From positions 1 through 41,763 of the forward strand of contig CAIXLU010000012.1 of assembly GCA_903920315.1 (NCBI GenBank): a stretch of 41,763 nucleotides of DNA. The letters are read 5' to 3'. This document shows positions 2,005 through 8,875 of the stretch, piece after piece. The notes beneath the pieces were generated by a model that was not told the DNA's origin, did not search any database, and saw only the letters and a list, made by a program, of their open reading frames with translations. The position numbers were made by a program, and so were the translations under genes. This stretch comes from an uncultured Oscillochloris sp. (GTDB lineage: Bacteria > Chloroflexota > Chloroflexia > Chloroflexales > Chloroflexaceae). How positions within the stretch are numbered: position 1 is the stretch's first letter; every line of letters begins with the position of its first letter.

Positions 2005-3198
2005 CTAGTAAAGCCACTCCTCAATGTGATACAGGGCGACACGCGGACGGCCCTGCGTCGCCAGACGCGCTCCGGTCTTTAGTTCGTCCATCTGGGTGTC
2101 GAGGGCAGATGAGGACAGGGGTACGATGCCGAGATCACGCATCCGGCTTGTGTAGTCGCTGTCGTCCGACACAATCAGCGGCGAAATGTACACCAGGTCG
2201 CCCGCATCGAGTCCCATCGCGGTCAGTACTGACAGCGACTGCGCAACGTGCTGGGGGGCCAGGGATTGGCCGCCCACCCCGGCCAGCAGAATGATCCCCA
2301 CATGGATGCCCGCCATCTTAATCCGCTCAACGGTTGTGATGCACTGCTGCGGCGAGCCGGGCTTGTTGAGCAGGTTGAACACCGCCTCGTCACCGCTCTC
2401 TAGCCCAATATAGACCCGCCGCACTCCCGCAGCGCGTAGCTCGGCGTACTCATCCGTGGTCTTCTGCTCGGCCCCAAAGATGTCCAGAAAGGCATAGAGA
2501 TCCTGGGCAGGCAATTCGTCGTGGATCACCTGGAGCAACTCTCGCAAGCGTTGCTGTGAGACAATCAGCGCGTTAGCATCGCCCAGGAAGATTGATCGCC
2601 GCATCCCCAACCCCCGCCCGAGGAGTGCCTTCACCTGCTGAATATGCTGGCGCAACGCCACTGGCGACTTGACCCGGAAGTGCCGATCACGGTAGAAGCT
2701 ACAGAATGTGCAGCGATTCCAGCTACAGCCCTCGGTTATCTGGAGTACTAGGGCGCGATACTGATCTGGCGGCACAATGCTGATCGGCAGATAGGTTGAC
2801 TGGAACATGCGCCGGTTGACCAAGGCACGATCCTCGTCCCAGGCCATGATCTGCGCGAACCAGCCGCGCAGATCGTCGGATAGCGCGTGAGTCACCCCCG
2901 CCACTATCCGCGCCACATGGGCGTGAACCGTCGCGTGCAAACGGACGCATTCGTCCTCCGACAAAAGCTGCCGGAGTTTTGGCGCCGGTGGTGCCGCAAC
3001 TATCTTGAGCAGAATGTCGCCCGAGATGCCAAAGCGATAGTTCCCACCATTGAGGAAACAACTCAGGGGACGACCCTCACGGTCGAAGGTAAAGGTAGCA
3101 CGCAAATTATCCGATATCGTGAGCGCCCAGGGTCGCGCATTGATATGGATCGATCCAAGTTCTGGGGTGGTAATAACCGAGGTAGTAGCCGTATCCAT
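2005..3198 (-). CDS. Radical SAM protein
   Basis: This is a 397-residue protein with the iron-sulfur cluster motif GCSWNRCTFCSFY (C158, C163, C166; CX4CX2C spacing, a variant of the usual CX3CX2C). It is followed by the expected SAM-barrel features: FLGDANAL, a GVRRVYIGLESGDE segment and a GIHVGIILLAGVGG strand. Enzymes of this class reductively cleave S-adenosylmethionine to a 5'-deoxyadenosyl radical. The first 150 residues form an N-terminal region that I do not recognise. No C-terminal cobalamin, SPASM or TRAM domain is obvious. The substrate is unknown. The gene begins 8 bp after the stop of the CheY-like receiver, so the two are probably co-transcribed with the upstream partner-switching genes. 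Confidence 0.85.
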   Translation of the reverse strand: MDTATTSVITTPELGSIHINARPWALTISDNLRATFTFDREGRPLSCFLNGGNYRFGISGDILLKIVAAPPAPKLRQLLSEDECVRLHATVHAHVARIVAGVTHALSDDLRGWFAQIMAWDEDRALVNRRMFQSTYLPISIVPPDQYRALVLQITEGCSWNRCTFCSFYRDRHFRVKSPVALRQHIQQVKALLGRGLGMRRSIFLGDANALIVSQQRLRELLQVIHDELPAQDLYAFLDIFGAEQKTTDEYAELRAAGVRRVYIGLESGDEAVFNLLNKPGSPQQCITTVERIKMAGIHVGIILLAGVGGQSLAPQHVAQSLSVLTAMGLDAGDLVYISPLIVSDDSDYTSRMRDLGIVPLSSSALDTQMDELKTGARLATQGRPRVALYHIEEWLY

Positions 3199-3206
3199 GC
3201 TGTCAT

Positions 3207-3581
3207 TCAGTCTCTCGATTGGCGTGCGAAAAAGGTCTGGACGCGGCGCTCAAGTTCCTCAAAATCAAAGGGCTTGGTGAGGTACTCATTTACTCCCACA
3301 CGGTAGGCATACTTCTCGGTATCGGGTGTACCGAACGCCGTCACCATGATCACATAGACATCCGCATTCTTCTGGCGGAGCGCTCGCACGAGATCAATCC
3401 CTCCCATGCGTGGCATATTCATATCTGTGATGATGACATCACTTGGCTGCGTCGCATAGCGTTCAAGGGCAGCCACTCCGTCTTCAGCCTCAACCACTGT
3501 ATAACCGCTGTTTGTCAGCAGAAAGCGATAGAGGCGACGGGTTGCTGGATCATCTTCAACGATCATCACCGTGGATGACAC
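3207..3581 (-). CDS. CheY-like single-domain response regulator
   Basis: This is a 124-residue stand-alone receiver domain. The acidic pocket is ED10D11, the phospho-acceptor is D53 in the strand DVIITDMNMP, a Thr/Ala switch lies in VTAFG, and the conserved Lys is in YLTKPFDF. No output domain follows, so it must signal through protein contact. The apparent start is GTG at 3581, with GAGG about 9 bases upstream; a later in-frame ATG lies within the first strand and would truncate it. It sits 131 bp after the STAS gene and 8 bp before the radical SAM gene, all on the minus strand. No cognate kinase is adjacent; the RsbW-type protein upstream is a Ser/Thr kinase family member, not a histidine kinase. 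Confidence 0.9.
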   Translation of the reverse strand: MSSTVMIVEDDPATRRLYRFLLTNSGYTVVEAEDGVAALERYATQPSDVIITDMNMPRMGGIDLVRALRQKNADVYVIMVTAFGTPDTEKYAYRVGVNEYLTKPFDFEELERRVQTFFARQSRD

Positions 3582-3712
3582 ATGTGCCTCGCTTCGCTAC
3601 TCAATCAATGACGCGGTGCGCTTCACCTACACGAACGAGGAGTACCCGCAATATCGCGCATGTCTTTTGGGTGGAATCACGCCCTTATGATACCATATCG
3701 TTTTTCAGAACC

Positions 3713-4039
3713 TCAGCGGAACTCGGCAAGATCGCGCTCGTCAATCGGGGGCATAAAGCGCGACATCTCGACCATCTTGAAAATCTTCTGGTGATGGGGG
3801 CTGACGTGCATCGCAAAGAGCTTATAGCCCGACTTCCGTGCCGAGACGACAAACTTTAGCAGGGCCGAGATTCCCGCTGAGTTAATAAACGAGACCTCGC
3901 TGAAATCAAGAACAGTGATTGGACGCATCTGCTCATATTCAGCCGCAATTGCCTCCGCCGATATTGCATCAACGCTGGTGCTGGTAATATGTAGGACGGC
4001 AACATCACCGAACTCTTCGCGCCGAATAATGTCGCTCAT
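3713..4039 (-). CDS. STAS-domain anti-sigma factor antagonist (SpoIIAA/RsbV-like)
   Basis: This is a 108-residue STAS-domain protein. The hallmark phosphorylation loop is DFSEVSFINSAGISAL, with S54 as the expected target serine. In this family the unphosphorylated form binds the anti-sigma kinase and frees its target, and phosphorylation by the kinase ends that contact. Its start codon overlaps the stop of the RsbW-like kinase gene by 4 bp (ATGA at 4036-4039), a sign of translational coupling and of 1:1 partner production. No sigma factor gene is present in the window, so the final target is unknown. The gene order, kinase before antagonist, is the reverse of the classical rsbV-rsbW arrangement. 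Confidence 0.92.
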   Translation of the reverse strand: MSDIIRREEFGDVAVLHITSTSVDAISAEAIAAEYEQMRPITVLDFSEVSFINSAGISALLKFVVSARKSGYKLFAMHVSPHHQKIFKMVEMSRFMPPIDERDLAEFR

Positions 4040-4464
4040 GGCTGCTCACTTCTCCGATAGAGTCGTAGGGTCAGTACGGTACCCTTCTGTGAGGAGTTTA
4101 CCTCATAATCATCAACAAGTTCACTAATGAGGTACATGCCGAACCCGCGCAGATAGCCTGCTTCAAGGCTCTGCTCATCAATGACGTGGCGGGAGACATC
4201 GTGTCCTTCCATGCCGGTTCCCTGGTCACTGATCCGGATCTCCAACTTCTCGCCATCAATCTCAAAAACCACGGCGACCAGCTTATTCACCTCGCCCTGG
4301 TTGCCATGATCAATCGCATTATTCACCGCCTCACTAATCGCTAGCTTCAGATCTTCGACCCGCTCATCGGAGAATCCGAAGGCAGCGCCAAGCTCGGCGG
4401 CGGTCGCCCGTACCACACGCTCAAAGATCGGGTTCGAGGGGATGTTCAGCTCTATGCGCTGCAT
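4036..4464 (-). CDS. RsbW/SpoIIAB-like anti-sigma factor serine kinase
   Basis: This is a 142-residue HATPase_c (GHKL) protein of the anti-sigma kinase type. The N-box is LAISEAVNNAIDHGN (E45, N48, N49), the G1-like box is ISDQGTGM, and the G2 box is RGFGMYLI. The family binds a sigma factor or other client and phosphorylates the STAS partner on serine with ATP. The start ATG at 4464 has AGGGG about 8 bases upstream. It is the first gene of a minus-strand group: kinase, STAS, receiver, radical SAM. The upstream 1.2 kb contains no gene, so the operon promoter should lie within 4470-4600, but no consensus stands out by eye. Confidence 0.92.
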   Translation of the reverse strand: MQRIELNIPSNPIFERVVRATAAELGAAFGFSDERVEDLKLAISEAVNNAIDHGNQGEVNKLVAVVFEIDGEKLEIRISDQGTGMEGHDVSRHVIDEQSLEAGYLRGFGMYLISELVDDYEVNSSQKGTVLTLRLYRRSEQP

Positions 4465-5070: not shown

Positions 5071-5098
5071 TATCGGCTATCGGGTATCGGCTATCGGC
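5071..5098. repeat. Heptamer tandem array (TATCGGS x4)
   Basis: Four 7-bp units (TATCGGC, TATCGGG, TATCGGC, TATCGGC) follow the palindromic repeat at a distance of about 15 bp. The complementary unit AGCCGAT makes up the array at 40582-40609, and the flanks of the two arrays are also related, which suggests that repeat and array moved or were copied together. Confidence 0.85.
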
Positions 5099-5143
5099 TC
5101 TTTTCACGCTACTATACCTCGCCGCCACTATGCTAGCACCTGT

Positions 5144-5159: not shown

Positions 5160-5560
5160 CACATGTGGCGAGCCGCCGCTGGAGCGAACCTCCAGAGGAA
5201 CTTCCCGACTCCTCGCCCACCCTCGGGTGGAAGGCCGCCCTGCGAAACAGCAAGTGGGGGCGCGTATGGGGCAACCTGTGCGCGACGCAAGACGGCAACA
5301 GAGAGCAGACCCGCCGGGGAAACTTGGTGAGGGGTGAAAGGGTGCGGGCGAAAGCCTTAATGTAAGAGCGCACCGGCGTTGGCAGTGATGCCGACGGCCA
5401 GGCGACTGCGCCGGCTGATGGGGAGCAAGGTGCGTGGGGCGAGCTCATCGGTAGGAGCCGTAAAGCGTTTGTACTACCCCGCTCGTTCGCATCGCCGCCG
5501 TAACGGCAGACCGGGTAGCACCCGGCGCGCTAGGAGCGGCCTCCGCTTCGTGCGGAGAGA
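5160..5560 (+). ncRNA. rnpB: RNase P RNA-like gene (bacterial type A-like)
   Basis: Several stretches match RNase P RNA conserved regions in the right order: AGAGGAACTTCC...GACTCC (5194-5212, CR-I position, fits GGAANNUC), AACAGAGAGCA...ACC-GCCG (5297-5315), GGTGAGGGGTGAAAGGGTGC (5326-5345), TAAGAGCGCACC (5363-5374) and GGGGAGCAAGG (5420-5430). A short P3-like hairpin (CTGGAG/CTCCAG, 5179-5195) precedes CR-I. GAGCCGC (5170-5176) can pair with GCGGCCTC (5536-5543) to close the molecule, and CTCCGC/GCGGAG (5541-5557) forms a 3' hairpin. The RNA would be the catalytic subunit that trims tRNA 5' leaders. Oddities: the P4 bases differ from the common GGAAAGUCC, and the usual CR-V (ACAGAAxCCGGCUUA) is not clear, the best candidates being GCAGACCGGGTAGC (5506-5519) or AGCACCCGGC (5517-5526). 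A small GAAA hairpin interrupts the loop at 5347-5356. Ends are approximate. Confidence 0.75.
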
Positions 5561-5656
5561 GAGATGGCGGCAGAGAACAAAATCGGGGGTATAGCCACGT
5601 GTGTGTTCCATCCCGGCCCGCAGCGTATCGCTACGGGCCGGGATGTTTGCGTAAGC

Positions 5657-5692
<36 letters not shown>

Positions 5693-5704
5693 TCGAGGTT
5701 CCCC

Positions 5705-8700
5705 ATGTCTGTTACGTTATTCCTCGCTGAGATCGCGGGCTGCCTCAAGAGCGGCATCGCCACTGAACATACCTATCGTCCCGCGTTGCAACAGCTTTTT
5801 GAGGCGATGTTGAGTCCGGCGAAGGCGACTAACGAGCCGAAGCACGCTCAGTATGGTGCGCCTGATTTTGTGATTCAGCAGGGCAATACGCCCATCGGCC
5901 ATGTTGAGGCGAAAGACATTGGGGTTAAGCTCGATCTGATCATCGGCGATAGCGAGCGCGAGAAGCCGCGTACCCGCGAGGGGACGCAGCTTCGACGGTA
6001 CCGCGCCGCTCTGCCCAATTTGCTCTTTACCGATGGCCTGGAGTGGCATTGGTTTGTCAATGGCACAGCCCGCCTCGAACTTCCGCTCCGCGTTGCTGCT
6101 TGGGACAAGGCCAAGCAGAAGCTCGTCCCTACGCCGACGGCAGCAGCGGATCTTGCCGGTCTGCTCTCCCAGTTCGCCGCACAGCAGATCCCGACCGTTA
6201 ATACGCCCCGCGAACTGGCGAGTCGGCTGGCGCAGGCGGCGCGTTGGCTGCACGATGTGATTGTTGATGTGCTGACGGCGCAGGGCGAAACGGGCGATTT
6301 ACATCAGCAGCTTACGGCGTTTCGCCAGACTCTCTTGCCGACCCTCAAGGGAGATGAGTTTGCCGATATGTACGCCCAGACGATTGTCTATGGCCTCTTT
6401 GCGGCCCGCGTTGCGATGCCGGAGAAGCTGAATTTTAGCCGCCTTGATGCGGCGATGTCCATCCCCAAAACCAACCCGTTTTTGCGTAAGCTGTTTCAGG
6501 AGATCGCAGGCTACGATCTTGATGAGCGCATCGCCTGGCTGGTGGATGATTGCGCCAGCCTATTGGCCCGCACCGATATTGGCGCGGTGCTGAAGGATTT
6601 TGGCAAGGCGACCAAGCAGGAAGATCCGGTTGTCCATTTCTACGAGACGTTTCTGGCCGCCTATAACCCGGCCCTGCGCGAATCTCGGGGCGTTTACTAC
6701 ACGCCTGAGCCGGTGGTCGGCTACATTGTGCGCTCGGTTGATCACCTGCTGACAACGCATTTCCACAAGCCAATGGGATTGGCCGACGAAAGTACGGTGA
6801 TTCTCGATCCGGCCACGGGTACGGCGACGTTTCTCTACGCGGTGGTGCAGCGCATCCACACGACCCTCAGCGACATGGGGTTGGCCGGAGCATGGGATAG
6901 CTATGTCTCGGAAAAGTTGCTGCGTCGGCTCTTTGGCTTTGAATTGCTGATGGCCCCGTACACCATTGCGCACCTGAAAATGGGACTGCTGCTGGGCCAG
7001 CTTGGTTATCATTTTGGCAGTAACGAGCGGCTGGGGATTTACCTGACTAATGCCTTGGAGGAAGCGTCTGTCCAGGCGACCATGCCATTTGCCCAATATA
7101 TCGCCCAGGAGGGCGAGGCGGCGAACGTGGTCAAGCAAGATAAGCCGGTGATGGTGATTATGGGAAACCCACCCTACTCAGGGCATAGCACAAATACGGG
7201 TGATTGGATTAAATCGCTCATTGAAGATTACAGGAAGGGTTTTCCTGATTTGTATAAGCCCGCTCAAGCTAAATGGCTCCAAGATGATTACGTGAAGTTT
7301 ATCCGTTTTGCTCAATGGCGTCTTGCCGAAACAGGAGAAGGCATTCTTGGATTCATTACAAATAATGGATATTTAGACAACTCAACTTTTAAGGGAATGC
7401 GTAAGAGTCTCCTTGAGGAGTTTGATGTTATCTACATCATGAATCTCCATGGGAACAGTAAAAAGAAGGAGTTTTCGCCTGACGGGTCATCTGAGGAGAA
7501 TGTCTTTGACATCCAACAAGGTGTAGCAATCGGCTTATTCATACGCCGAAAAGGCAAAAAAACAACGTTGGCCAAGCTACACTATGCTGATATTTGGGGA
7601 GGACGCGCAGAAAAATACGCTTTCCTTGAGACACATGATGTTGGCAATACCTCATGGGTCGAGGTGACACCAAGTGAACCAGCGTATCTTTTCAAGCCAC
7701 AGTCAACTGAGGTCAAGAAGGAGTACGAATCGGGATGGAGGTTACACCATGCCATGGGAGAAAATGGCGATCCAGCACCAGGTATTATTACTACTCACGA
7801 TGAATTTGCAGTCTCTTGGAATAGTGCTGAGGCGAAAGCCAAAATCAATCAGTTCCTATCTACGACGAATGAGCAAGAGGCTCGATTAATGTGGCGTTTG
7901 TGTACCCAAAATCAATGGCAATATGATCGCGCAAAAATTGCTCTTTTGAATGAACCTTGGGAAAATGATGTTTGTCCCATTCTGTATAGACCTTTTGACG
8001 TCAGATGGACGGTGTATAACTCCCACGTTGCGGTTCATCGTCGTGTCCGAGTAATGAGGCATATGCGATCTGGTGCAAATTTAGCACTTTGCGTCAGTCG
8101 TGGATTTGAAATACAAACCGGATACGAACACGTTTTCTGCTCAGATAGTATCATTCAGCATCACACTGTTTCGATAAAGGAAGTGAATTTTCTCTTTCCC
8201 CTGTATCTGTACTATCCTCTGTCTGATCGACATGCTAATTTCTCTGATAATTTCGTTGCACATATAGCAACTCAGGTACGATTGACATACATTGGCAATG
8301 GAAAAGGCGACCTTGTTCATAATTTCGGCCCCGAAGACATTTTCCACTACATCTACGCCATCTTCCACAGCCCCACCTATCGCACCCGCTACGCCGAGTT
8401 CCTCAAAATTGACTTCCCGCGCCTGCCGGTCACCAGCGATACCGCGCTCTTCACCGATCTCGTGGCGAAGGGAGCCGAGTTGGTTGATCTGCACCTGCTG
8501 AGGCTACCGGGAAGTAGCGGCGTCGGCGGCAACGGCGGCGCGGCGATCCTGCTGACTCCTGGCAAACAGGGAATCAGCTTCCCGCACAGCGGAACGGGGA
8601 TAGTCGAGAAAGTTGTCTACATCGCGCCAAAGGAGAGTGAACCGGGGCGGGTGGCGATCAACAGCACGCAATTTTTTATGGGCATTGATCGCGACATCTG

Positions 8701-8875
8701 GGAGGCGCAGATCGGCGGCTACCAGCCGCTGGAAAAGTGGCTCAAGGATCGCAAAGGGCGTAAACTGAGTATGGACGACATCCTGCACTATATGCGGATA
8801 GTCATCGCCCTACGCGAGACGCAGCGGATCATGGCCGAGATAGATGGACTCATTCCGGGTTGGCCATTGGAGTAG
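5705..8875 (+). CDS. Single-chain restriction enzyme/N6-adenine methyltransferase (Type ISP/IIG-like)
   Basis: This protein of about 1056 residues combines a PD-(D/E)XK nuclease and an adenine methyltransferase. The nuclease site is GAPDFV...GHVEAKD (D54, E68, K70). The methylase has VYYTPEPVVGYIVRSV ahead of SAM motif I, DPATGT (368-373), and catalytic motif IV, NPPY (488-491). The remaining half should hold the target-recognition domain. Type ISP enzymes such as LlaGI are about 1600 residues with a helicase between nuclease and methylase; no helicase motifs are seen here, so Type IIG/IIL-like action is more likely. ATG 5705 is preferred over 5564 because the extra 47 codons run through a heptamer array. 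Codon use changes sharply to AT-rich from about 7195 to 8330 (residues ~498-876), then returns, suggesting a replaced recognition module. No separate S, R or M gene is adjacent. Confidence 0.88.
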   Translation: MSVTLFLAEIAGCLKSGIATEHTYRPALQQLFEAMLSPAKATNEPKHAQYGAPDFVIQQGNTPIGHVEAKDIGVKLDLIIGDSEREKPRTREGTQLRRYRAALPNLLFTDGLEWHWFVNGTARLELPLRVAAWDKAKQKLVPTPTAAADLAGLLSQFAAQQIPTVNTPRELASRLAQAARWLHDVIVDVLTAQGETGDLHQQLTAFRQTLLPTLKGDEFADMYAQTIVYGLFAARVAMPEKLNFSRLDAAMSIPKTNPFLRKLFQEIAGYDLDERIAWLVDDCASLLARTDIGAVLKDFGKATKQEDPVVHFYETFLAAYNPALRESRGVYYTPEPVVGYIVRSVDHLLTTHFHKPMGLADESTVILDPATGTATFLYAVVQRIHTTLSDMGLAGAWDSYVSEKLLRRLFGFELLMAPYTIAHLKMGLLLGQLGYHFGSNERLGIYLTNALEEASVQATMPFAQYIAQEGEAANVVKQDKPVMVIMGNPPYSGHSTNTGDWIKSLIEDYRKGFPDLYKPAQAKWLQDDYVKFIRFAQWRLAETGEGILGFITNNGYLDNSTFKGMRKSLLEEFDVIYIMNLHGNSKKKEFSPDGSSEENVFDIQQGVAIGLFIRRKGKKTTLAKLHYADIWGGRAEKYAFLETHDVGNTSWVEVTPSEPAYLFKPQSTEVKKEYESGWRLHHAMGENGDPAPGIITTHDEFAVSWNSAEAKAKINQFLSTTNEQEARLMWRLCTQNQWQYDRAKIALLNEPWENDVCPILYRPFDVRWTVYNSHVAVHRRVRVMRHMRSGANLALCVSRGFEIQTGYEHVFCSDSIIQHHTVSIKEVNFLFPLYLYYPLSDRHANFSDNFVAHIATQVRLTYIGNGKGDLVHNFGPEDIFHYIYAIFHSPTYRTRYAEFLKIDFPRLPVTSDTALFTDLVAKGAELVDLHLLRLPGSSGVGGNGGAAILLTPGKQGISFPHSGTGIVEKVVYIAPKESEPGRVAINSTQFFMGIDRDIWEAQIGGYQPLEKWLKDRKGRKLSMDDILHYMRIVIALRETQRIMAEIDGLIPGWPLE

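What the first reader, a model, noticed from the sequence alone, without database searches (positions are those of the whole stretch)
5160..5560. RNase P RNA with canonical specificity-domain motifs but unusual P4 core
The internal motifs (AACAGAGAGCA, GGTGAGGGGTGAAAGGGTGC, TAAGAGCGCACC, GGAGCAAGG) look like normal type A RNase P RNA, but CR-I reads GGAACTTCC instead of GGAAAGTCC and the standard CR-V is not obvious. A partly compensating partner (CGGGTAG at 5512-5518) could restore P4 with a U-U pair. Either this lineage has a covarying P4, which would be striking in a near-invariant helix, or this is a second, derived copy. An extra GAAA hairpin lies in the GTAAGAG loop.
Basis: partly seen in the sequence, partly recalled or inferred. 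Interest (0 to 1): 0.7.

Follow-up and report, generated by a model that had tools for sequence, protein, structure and literature searches.

The report
RNase P RNA with rewritten P4
This is the bacterium's only gene for the catalytic RNA that trims transfer RNAs; the helix at its active site, described as universally conserved, has changed sequence here with every base pair kept, and the same rewritten form runs through a large part of one bacterial phylum.

Summary
The feature is real: a complete RNase P RNA gene (rnpB) at 5160-5607, the only one found in the genome, in a relative of Oscillochloris (Chloroflexales). CR-I reads GAGGAACUUCCCGACUCC. The true partner is CR-V at 5583-5590 (ACAAAA-UCGGGGGU-A). 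P4 is therefore ACU[U]CCCGA/UCGGGGGU, with all eight pairs and a U bulge, but four pairs changed on both sides relative to the E. coli-type helix. This P4 occurs across Chloroflexales and in Caldilineaceae, Ardenticatenaceae and other Chloroflexota. Across 24 distinct Chloroflexota P4 sequences, 99% of cells pair and seven of eight pairs show double changes. With P4 masked, ACU-type rnpB genes form one gene lineage in both domains, while RpoB places their hosts in several lineages (p-AU 5e-47), so the gene was probably transferred or sorted from an old duplication. The type also carries a P5.1-like hairpin and a new L8 loop; L8 is a known P4 partner. Two relatives appear to have A in place of the 'universal' bulged U. 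Function is inferred; there are no activity data. I found no earlier description, but the key older comparative paper could not be read.

The parts
5160..5607 (+). RNase P RNA gene (rnpB), ACU-P4 type
   Evidence: RF00010 match over the full model 1-367, E 4.2e-16; only copy in G000
5160..5169 (+). P1 5' strand
   Evidence: pairs with 5594-5603; pairs covary in the RNAalifold consensus
5195..5212 (+). CR-I, GAGGAACUUCCCGACUCC
   Evidence: aligned in register to the model's GAGGAAAGUCCGGGCUCC
5200..5208 (+). P4 5' strand A66 C67 U68 [U69] C70 C71 C72 G73 A74 (E. coli numbering)
   Evidence: pairs with 5590-5583, 8 of 8, bulge at U5203 or U5202
5217..5230 (+). extra hairpin after P5 (CCACC CUCG GGUGG), P5.1-like
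   Evidence: covarying hairpin in Chloroflexales; region absent from AAG-type Chloroflexota RNAs
5244..5253 (+). L8 loop GAAACAGCAA
   Evidence: motif GAAACNNNAA in 137 of 144 ACU-type loci and in none of 121 others
5347..5361 (+). 15-nt insert with GAAA hairpin in the P12 loop
   Evidence: present only in the window and G001 among the six same-genus loci compared
   Evidence: conserved hairpin, alignment columns 439-453 of A1
5577..5591 (+). CR-V, ACAAAAUCGGGGGUA; P4 3' strand is 5583-5590
   Evidence: aligned in register to the model's ACAGAACCCGGCUUA
5594..5603 (+). P1 3' strand

Best explanation
This is the cell's working RNase P RNA. Its catalytic helix P4 has been rewritten by paired substitutions: 67 A-U to C-G, 68 G-C to U-G (U-A in some relatives), 72 G-C to C-G, 74 G-C to A-U. 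A66-U, the C70 and C71 pairs and a bulged U are kept, so the bulged-helix metal site is most likely preserved in shape with different letters (inferred). The rewritten P4 belongs to a distinct rnpB gene lineage, the ACU type. That lineage also carries a P5.1-like hairpin and a 10-nt L8 loop, and probably adapted its L8-P4 contact (inferred). Its distribution among Chloroflexota follows the gene rather than the species tree, most simply by transfer of rnpB between lineages.
For: Register of CR-I and CR-V in the CM alignment. The same paired strands across Chloroflexales and named Caldilineaceae, Ardenticatenaceae and others. Over 24 distinct Chloroflexota P4 types, 99.0% of cells pair, 45 double-change cells against 11.4 in shuffles, covariation 0.705 against 0.162 in shuffles and at most 0.164 when slid. 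Single copy with an rnpA gene in the genome. ACU type plus the two A-bulge forms is one side of a branch with P4 masked: whole RNA 88, S-domain 88, C-domain 96; 99 in the 239-row FastTree. RpoB rejects their hosts as one clade, p 5e-47. The P4 type goes with the L8 type.
Against: No expression, cleavage or structural data. In isolation, folding does not fix the bulge: U68 and U69 are each unpaired 0.36-0.48 of the time, against 0.98 for U69 in the canonical helix. The rnpB trees rest on a few hundred columns, and structure-linked changes could pull ACU-type RNAs together; the single-domain tests do not reject the species grouping of f6 with f7 (p 0.16 and 0.35). Transfer and ancient duplication with loss are not separated.
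Confidence: 0.85

Rival explanations
1. The P4 rewriting arose several times independently in Chloroflexota lineages, and the RNAs look alike because the same structural changes accompany it.
For: RpoB scatters the type; P4 is labile in the phylum in other ways, such as CCGCA, CCAGA, CGAGA and CCCCA distal halves; single-domain trees cannot exclude it.
Against: The same four double changes, L8 motif and extra hairpin recur together; both RNA domains separately group the type, and the whole RNA rejects f6+f7 (p 6e-5).
Confidence: 0.2
2. It is a degenerate second copy, a pseudogene or an assembly artefact.
For: Score below the Rfam gathering threshold.
Against: Only copy in the genome; P4 and other helices conserved with compensatory changes; the same type in single-contig genomes G070 and G030.
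Confidence: 0.02
3. P4 forms with CGGGTAG at 5512-5518 and a U-U pair.
For: Six of seven bases are complementary.
Against: That segment is a hairpin arm; the CM places CR-V at 5577-5591; the duplex is weaker and leaves positions 66 and 74 unpaired.
Confidence: 0.01

Closest known systems
Type A bacterial RNase P RNA (RF00010; E. coli, T. maritima)
   Same: CR-I to CR-V in order, P1-P5, P7-P9, P11-P15 and P18-like elements, bulged P4
   Different: P4 letters changed at 67, 68, 72 and 74; extra hairpin after P5; L8 is GAAACNNNAA; extra G in the GGGGUGAAA and GGGGAGCAAGG motifs; scores below the gathering threshold
Type C RNase P RNA (Thermomicrobium, Sphaerobacter)
   Same: Also Chloroflexota and also divergent from type A
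   Different: Sphaerobacter (G062) has the canonical proximal P4, AAG[U]CCGAG, lacks the extra hairpin, and lies in the other rnpB lineage
Type B RNase P RNA (Bacillus; RF00011)
   Same: A hairpin after P5 recalls P5.1
   Different: No RF00011 match in the genome
Partial rnpB predictions in Roseiflexus and C. aggregans reported by Bcheck (PMC2996960)
   Same: Same organisms and the same symptom: tools recover only the P11/P12 part
   Different: That paper attributed failures generally to local variations and, in the passages read, did not describe P4

Membership tests
Bacterial RNase P RNA, type A (RF00010) | covariance-model score at or above the gathering threshold of 100 | tested here: not met
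   55.3 bits, E 4.2e-16 over the whole model
Bacterial RNase P RNA, type A (RF00010) | CR-I to CR-V in order with P1, P2, P3 and P5 | tested here: met
Bacterial RNase P RNA, type A (RF00010) | P4 long-range helix with one bulged nucleotide | tested here: met
   8 of 8 pairs with U5202/U5203 as bulge
Bacterial RNase P RNA, type A (RF00010) | conserved P4 letters AAG[U]CCGG/CCGGCUU | tested here: not met
   ACU[U]CCCGA/UCGGGGGU
Bacterial RNase P RNA, type A (RF00010) | GGU in the P15 internal loop, for pre-tRNA RCC | tested here: inconclusive
   no GGU seen at the expected place; a UGG bulge lies on the other side of P15
Type B (RF00011) | RF00011 match | tested here: not met
   none in the genome
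Type C | P10.1 and P15.2 together with P6, P16 and P17 (PMC7191817) | not tested
   only sequence comparison with Sphaerobacter G062 was made
Functional RNase P | 5' cleavage of pre-tRNA | not testable with these tools
   needs an in vitro assay; rnpA is present

The most novel reading that the evidence does not exclude
The ACU type is a separate structural type of bacterial RNase P RNA, passed horizontally among Chloroflexota, whose active-site helix and its L8 docking loop were rewritten together through intermediates, two of which still exist with a bulged A in place of the universally conserved metal-binding U.
Probability: 0.3. Interest if true: 0.85.

Novelty: new variant of a known kind. 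Interest (0 to 1): 0.68.

Why it matters
[quoted passage not shown] Natural, fully compensated rewrites show which letters are dispensable and which features (bulge position, A66-U, the C70 and C71 pairs) nearly always stay. They give ready-made test molecules for separating helix shape from base identity. They also offer a likely reason why annotation tools miss or truncate rnpB in Chloroflexus and Roseiflexus.

Tried and rejected
Second rnpB in the genome: RF00010 gives one match, RF00011 none. Hits of the CR-I 17-mer outside Chloroflexota (Blautia, Prevotella, Deltaproteobacteria and others) and in one Thermomicrobiales genome have no CR-V partner; the Thermomicrobiales hit reads like a glyceraldehyde-3-phosphate dehydrogenase gene, my reading. 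The 17-mer can be read as the peptide EELPD, so coding matches are expected. Extra 16-mer hits in G220 and G304 are not their rnpB. G059 seems to lack one G in CR-V where close relatives have six; treated as a probable homopolymer error. First RpoB extraction took wrong frames for several rows and was redone. Haas and Brown 1998 is not held. A check for the type in Armatimonadota could not be run.

Full report
Identity. The window holds a complete RNase P RNA on the + strand at 5160-5607. RF00010 matches over its whole length at 55.3 bits, E 4.2e-16, but below the gathering score of 100, so a default scan reports nothing. It is the only RF00010 match in the genome and there is no RF00011 match. 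The RNase P protein gene is present elsewhere in the genome. From memory of chromosome lengths, G070, G030 and G068 are Chloroflexus aurantiacus, Roseiflexus RS-1 and Herpetosiphon aurantiacus.

P4. The covariance-model alignment puts CR-I GAGGAACUUCCCGACUCC at 5195-5212 and CR-V ACAAAAUCGGGGGUA at 5577-5591 in register with the consensus. Reading E. coli numbers across: A66-U5590, C67-G5589, U68-G5588, [U69], C70-G5587, C71-G5586, C72-G5585, G73-C5584, A74-U5583. Against the canonical AAG[U]CCGGG/CCCGGCUU, pairs 67, 68, 72 and 74 are changed on both sides. One nuance: the bulge sits in a UU, and in isolation U68 and U69 share it (unpaired 0.48 and 0.36), whereas canonical P4 fixes it at U69 (0.98).

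Distribution. The same CR-I/CR-V pair is in nearly all Chloroflexales loci. Herpetosiphon has one C inserted before P4 and CCAGAA in CR-V. A genome-collection scan brought in named Caldilineaceae, Ardenticatenaceae, Herpetosiphonaceae and other Chloroflexota with all eight pairs kept, one of them with seven; 18 of the typed loci have UCGGGAGU, turning 68 into a Watson-Crick U-A. Other Chloroflexota keep AAG[U] but vary the distal half: CCGAG (42 loci), CCGCA (23), CCGAA (13), CCAGA (12), CCGGG, CCGGA, CCCCA, CGAGA and others. Over 24 distinct P4 types, 99.0% of cells pair, 7 of 8 pairs have double changes, and covariation is 0.705 against 0.162 for shuffles and at most 0.164 for slid controls. 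These types are distinct sequences, not independent events, and they were collected with a pairing filter (at least seven of eight pairs), which favours high pairing; a handful of loci gave no typed P4.

A possible intermediate series. One order of 13 genomes holds canonical AAG[U] (f28, f31, f70), AAU[A]UCCGA/UCGGAGUU (f43), AUU[A]CCCGC/GCGGGGGU (f60), and ACU[U] (f51, f52). The two A-bulge forms are single draft assemblies, and in isolation their proximal pairs are weak, so a bulged A is a comparative inference. Published work calls the bulged U universally conserved; E. coli U69A costs about 10-fold in catalysis and C70U about 250-fold (PMC11221534).

Gene history. An rnpB tree with P4 masked puts ACU types plus the two A-bulge forms on one side of a branch (239 rows, 99). 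On a set matched to RpoB this holds for the whole RNA (88), the S-domain (88) and the C-domain (96). RpoB rejects the hosts as one clade (p 5e-47), placing them within Chloroflexia as two groups (Chloroflexales beside f8, f7 beside f6), at the base of an Anaerolineales-like clade, and in the order of G235. The whole-RNA data reject f6+f7 (p 6e-5), but neither domain alone does. I read this as transfer of rnpB or sorting of an ancient duplication; parallel change is less likely but not excluded. No surveyed genome showed both types.

Other parts of the type. ACU-type RNAs share an extra hairpin after P5 (5217-5230), absent from AAG types, and L8 GAAACNNNAA in 137 of 144 loci against 0 of 121 others, including both A-bulge forms. 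L8-P4 is a recognised tertiary contact in type A RNA (PMC4227106), so a joint change of L8 and P4 is plausible; because P4 type and L8 type share one history, this is suggestive only. No GGU is apparent at the usual CCA-binding place in P15. Near ACU-type rnpB genes, 44 of 178 tRNA genes encode CCA, against 35 of 56 near AAG types, without correction for relatedness.

Literature. A review states P4 holds 11 of 21 universally conserved nucleotides (PMC4919922). Bcheck reported only partial rnpB for two Roseiflexus genomes and C. aggregans (PMC2996960), which resembles the RF00010 111-207 fragment hits seen here. P finder lists Sphaerobacter as type C (PMC7191817); its coordinates equal G062's, and it has canonical proximal P4. 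I found no description of a rewritten P4, but the library lacks most subscription papers and Haas and Brown 1998 could not be read, so priority is unsettled.

What is shown and what is inferred. Shown: sequence, register, pairing, covariation, single copy, distribution and tree conflict. Inferred: activity, metal binding, L8 coupling, transfer as mechanism, and the order of intermediates.

Noticed in passing
window 5564-8875 (+): Large ORF just downstream of rnpB with N6_Mtase and Type_ISP_C domains: a single-chain type ISP restriction-modification enzyme. Its listed ATG lies inside rnpB; the real start is probably the ATG near 5706.
   Followed up: partly
window 2005-4464 (-): Upstream cluster on the other strand: radical SAM protein, response regulator, STAS-domain protein and an anti-sigma-type HATPase.
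   Followed up: partly
window 5076-5103 and 5661-5691: Short direct repeats of the kind TATCGGC and GCAATCG flank rnpB on both sides.
   Followed up: no
L226 and L228: rnpB of families f43 and f60 appears to have A instead of the universal bulged U in P4.
   Followed up: partly
loci with ACU-type rnpB, e.g. L163, L165, L060: Several tRNA genes (Leu, Ala, Gly, Phe, Gln) lie close to rnpB in non-Chloroflexales members, many without an encoded CCA.
   Followed up: partly
Chloroflexales rnpB generally: No genome of the order in the 41 searched reached the Rfam gathering score, so rnpB is probably missed by default annotation there.
   Followed up: partly
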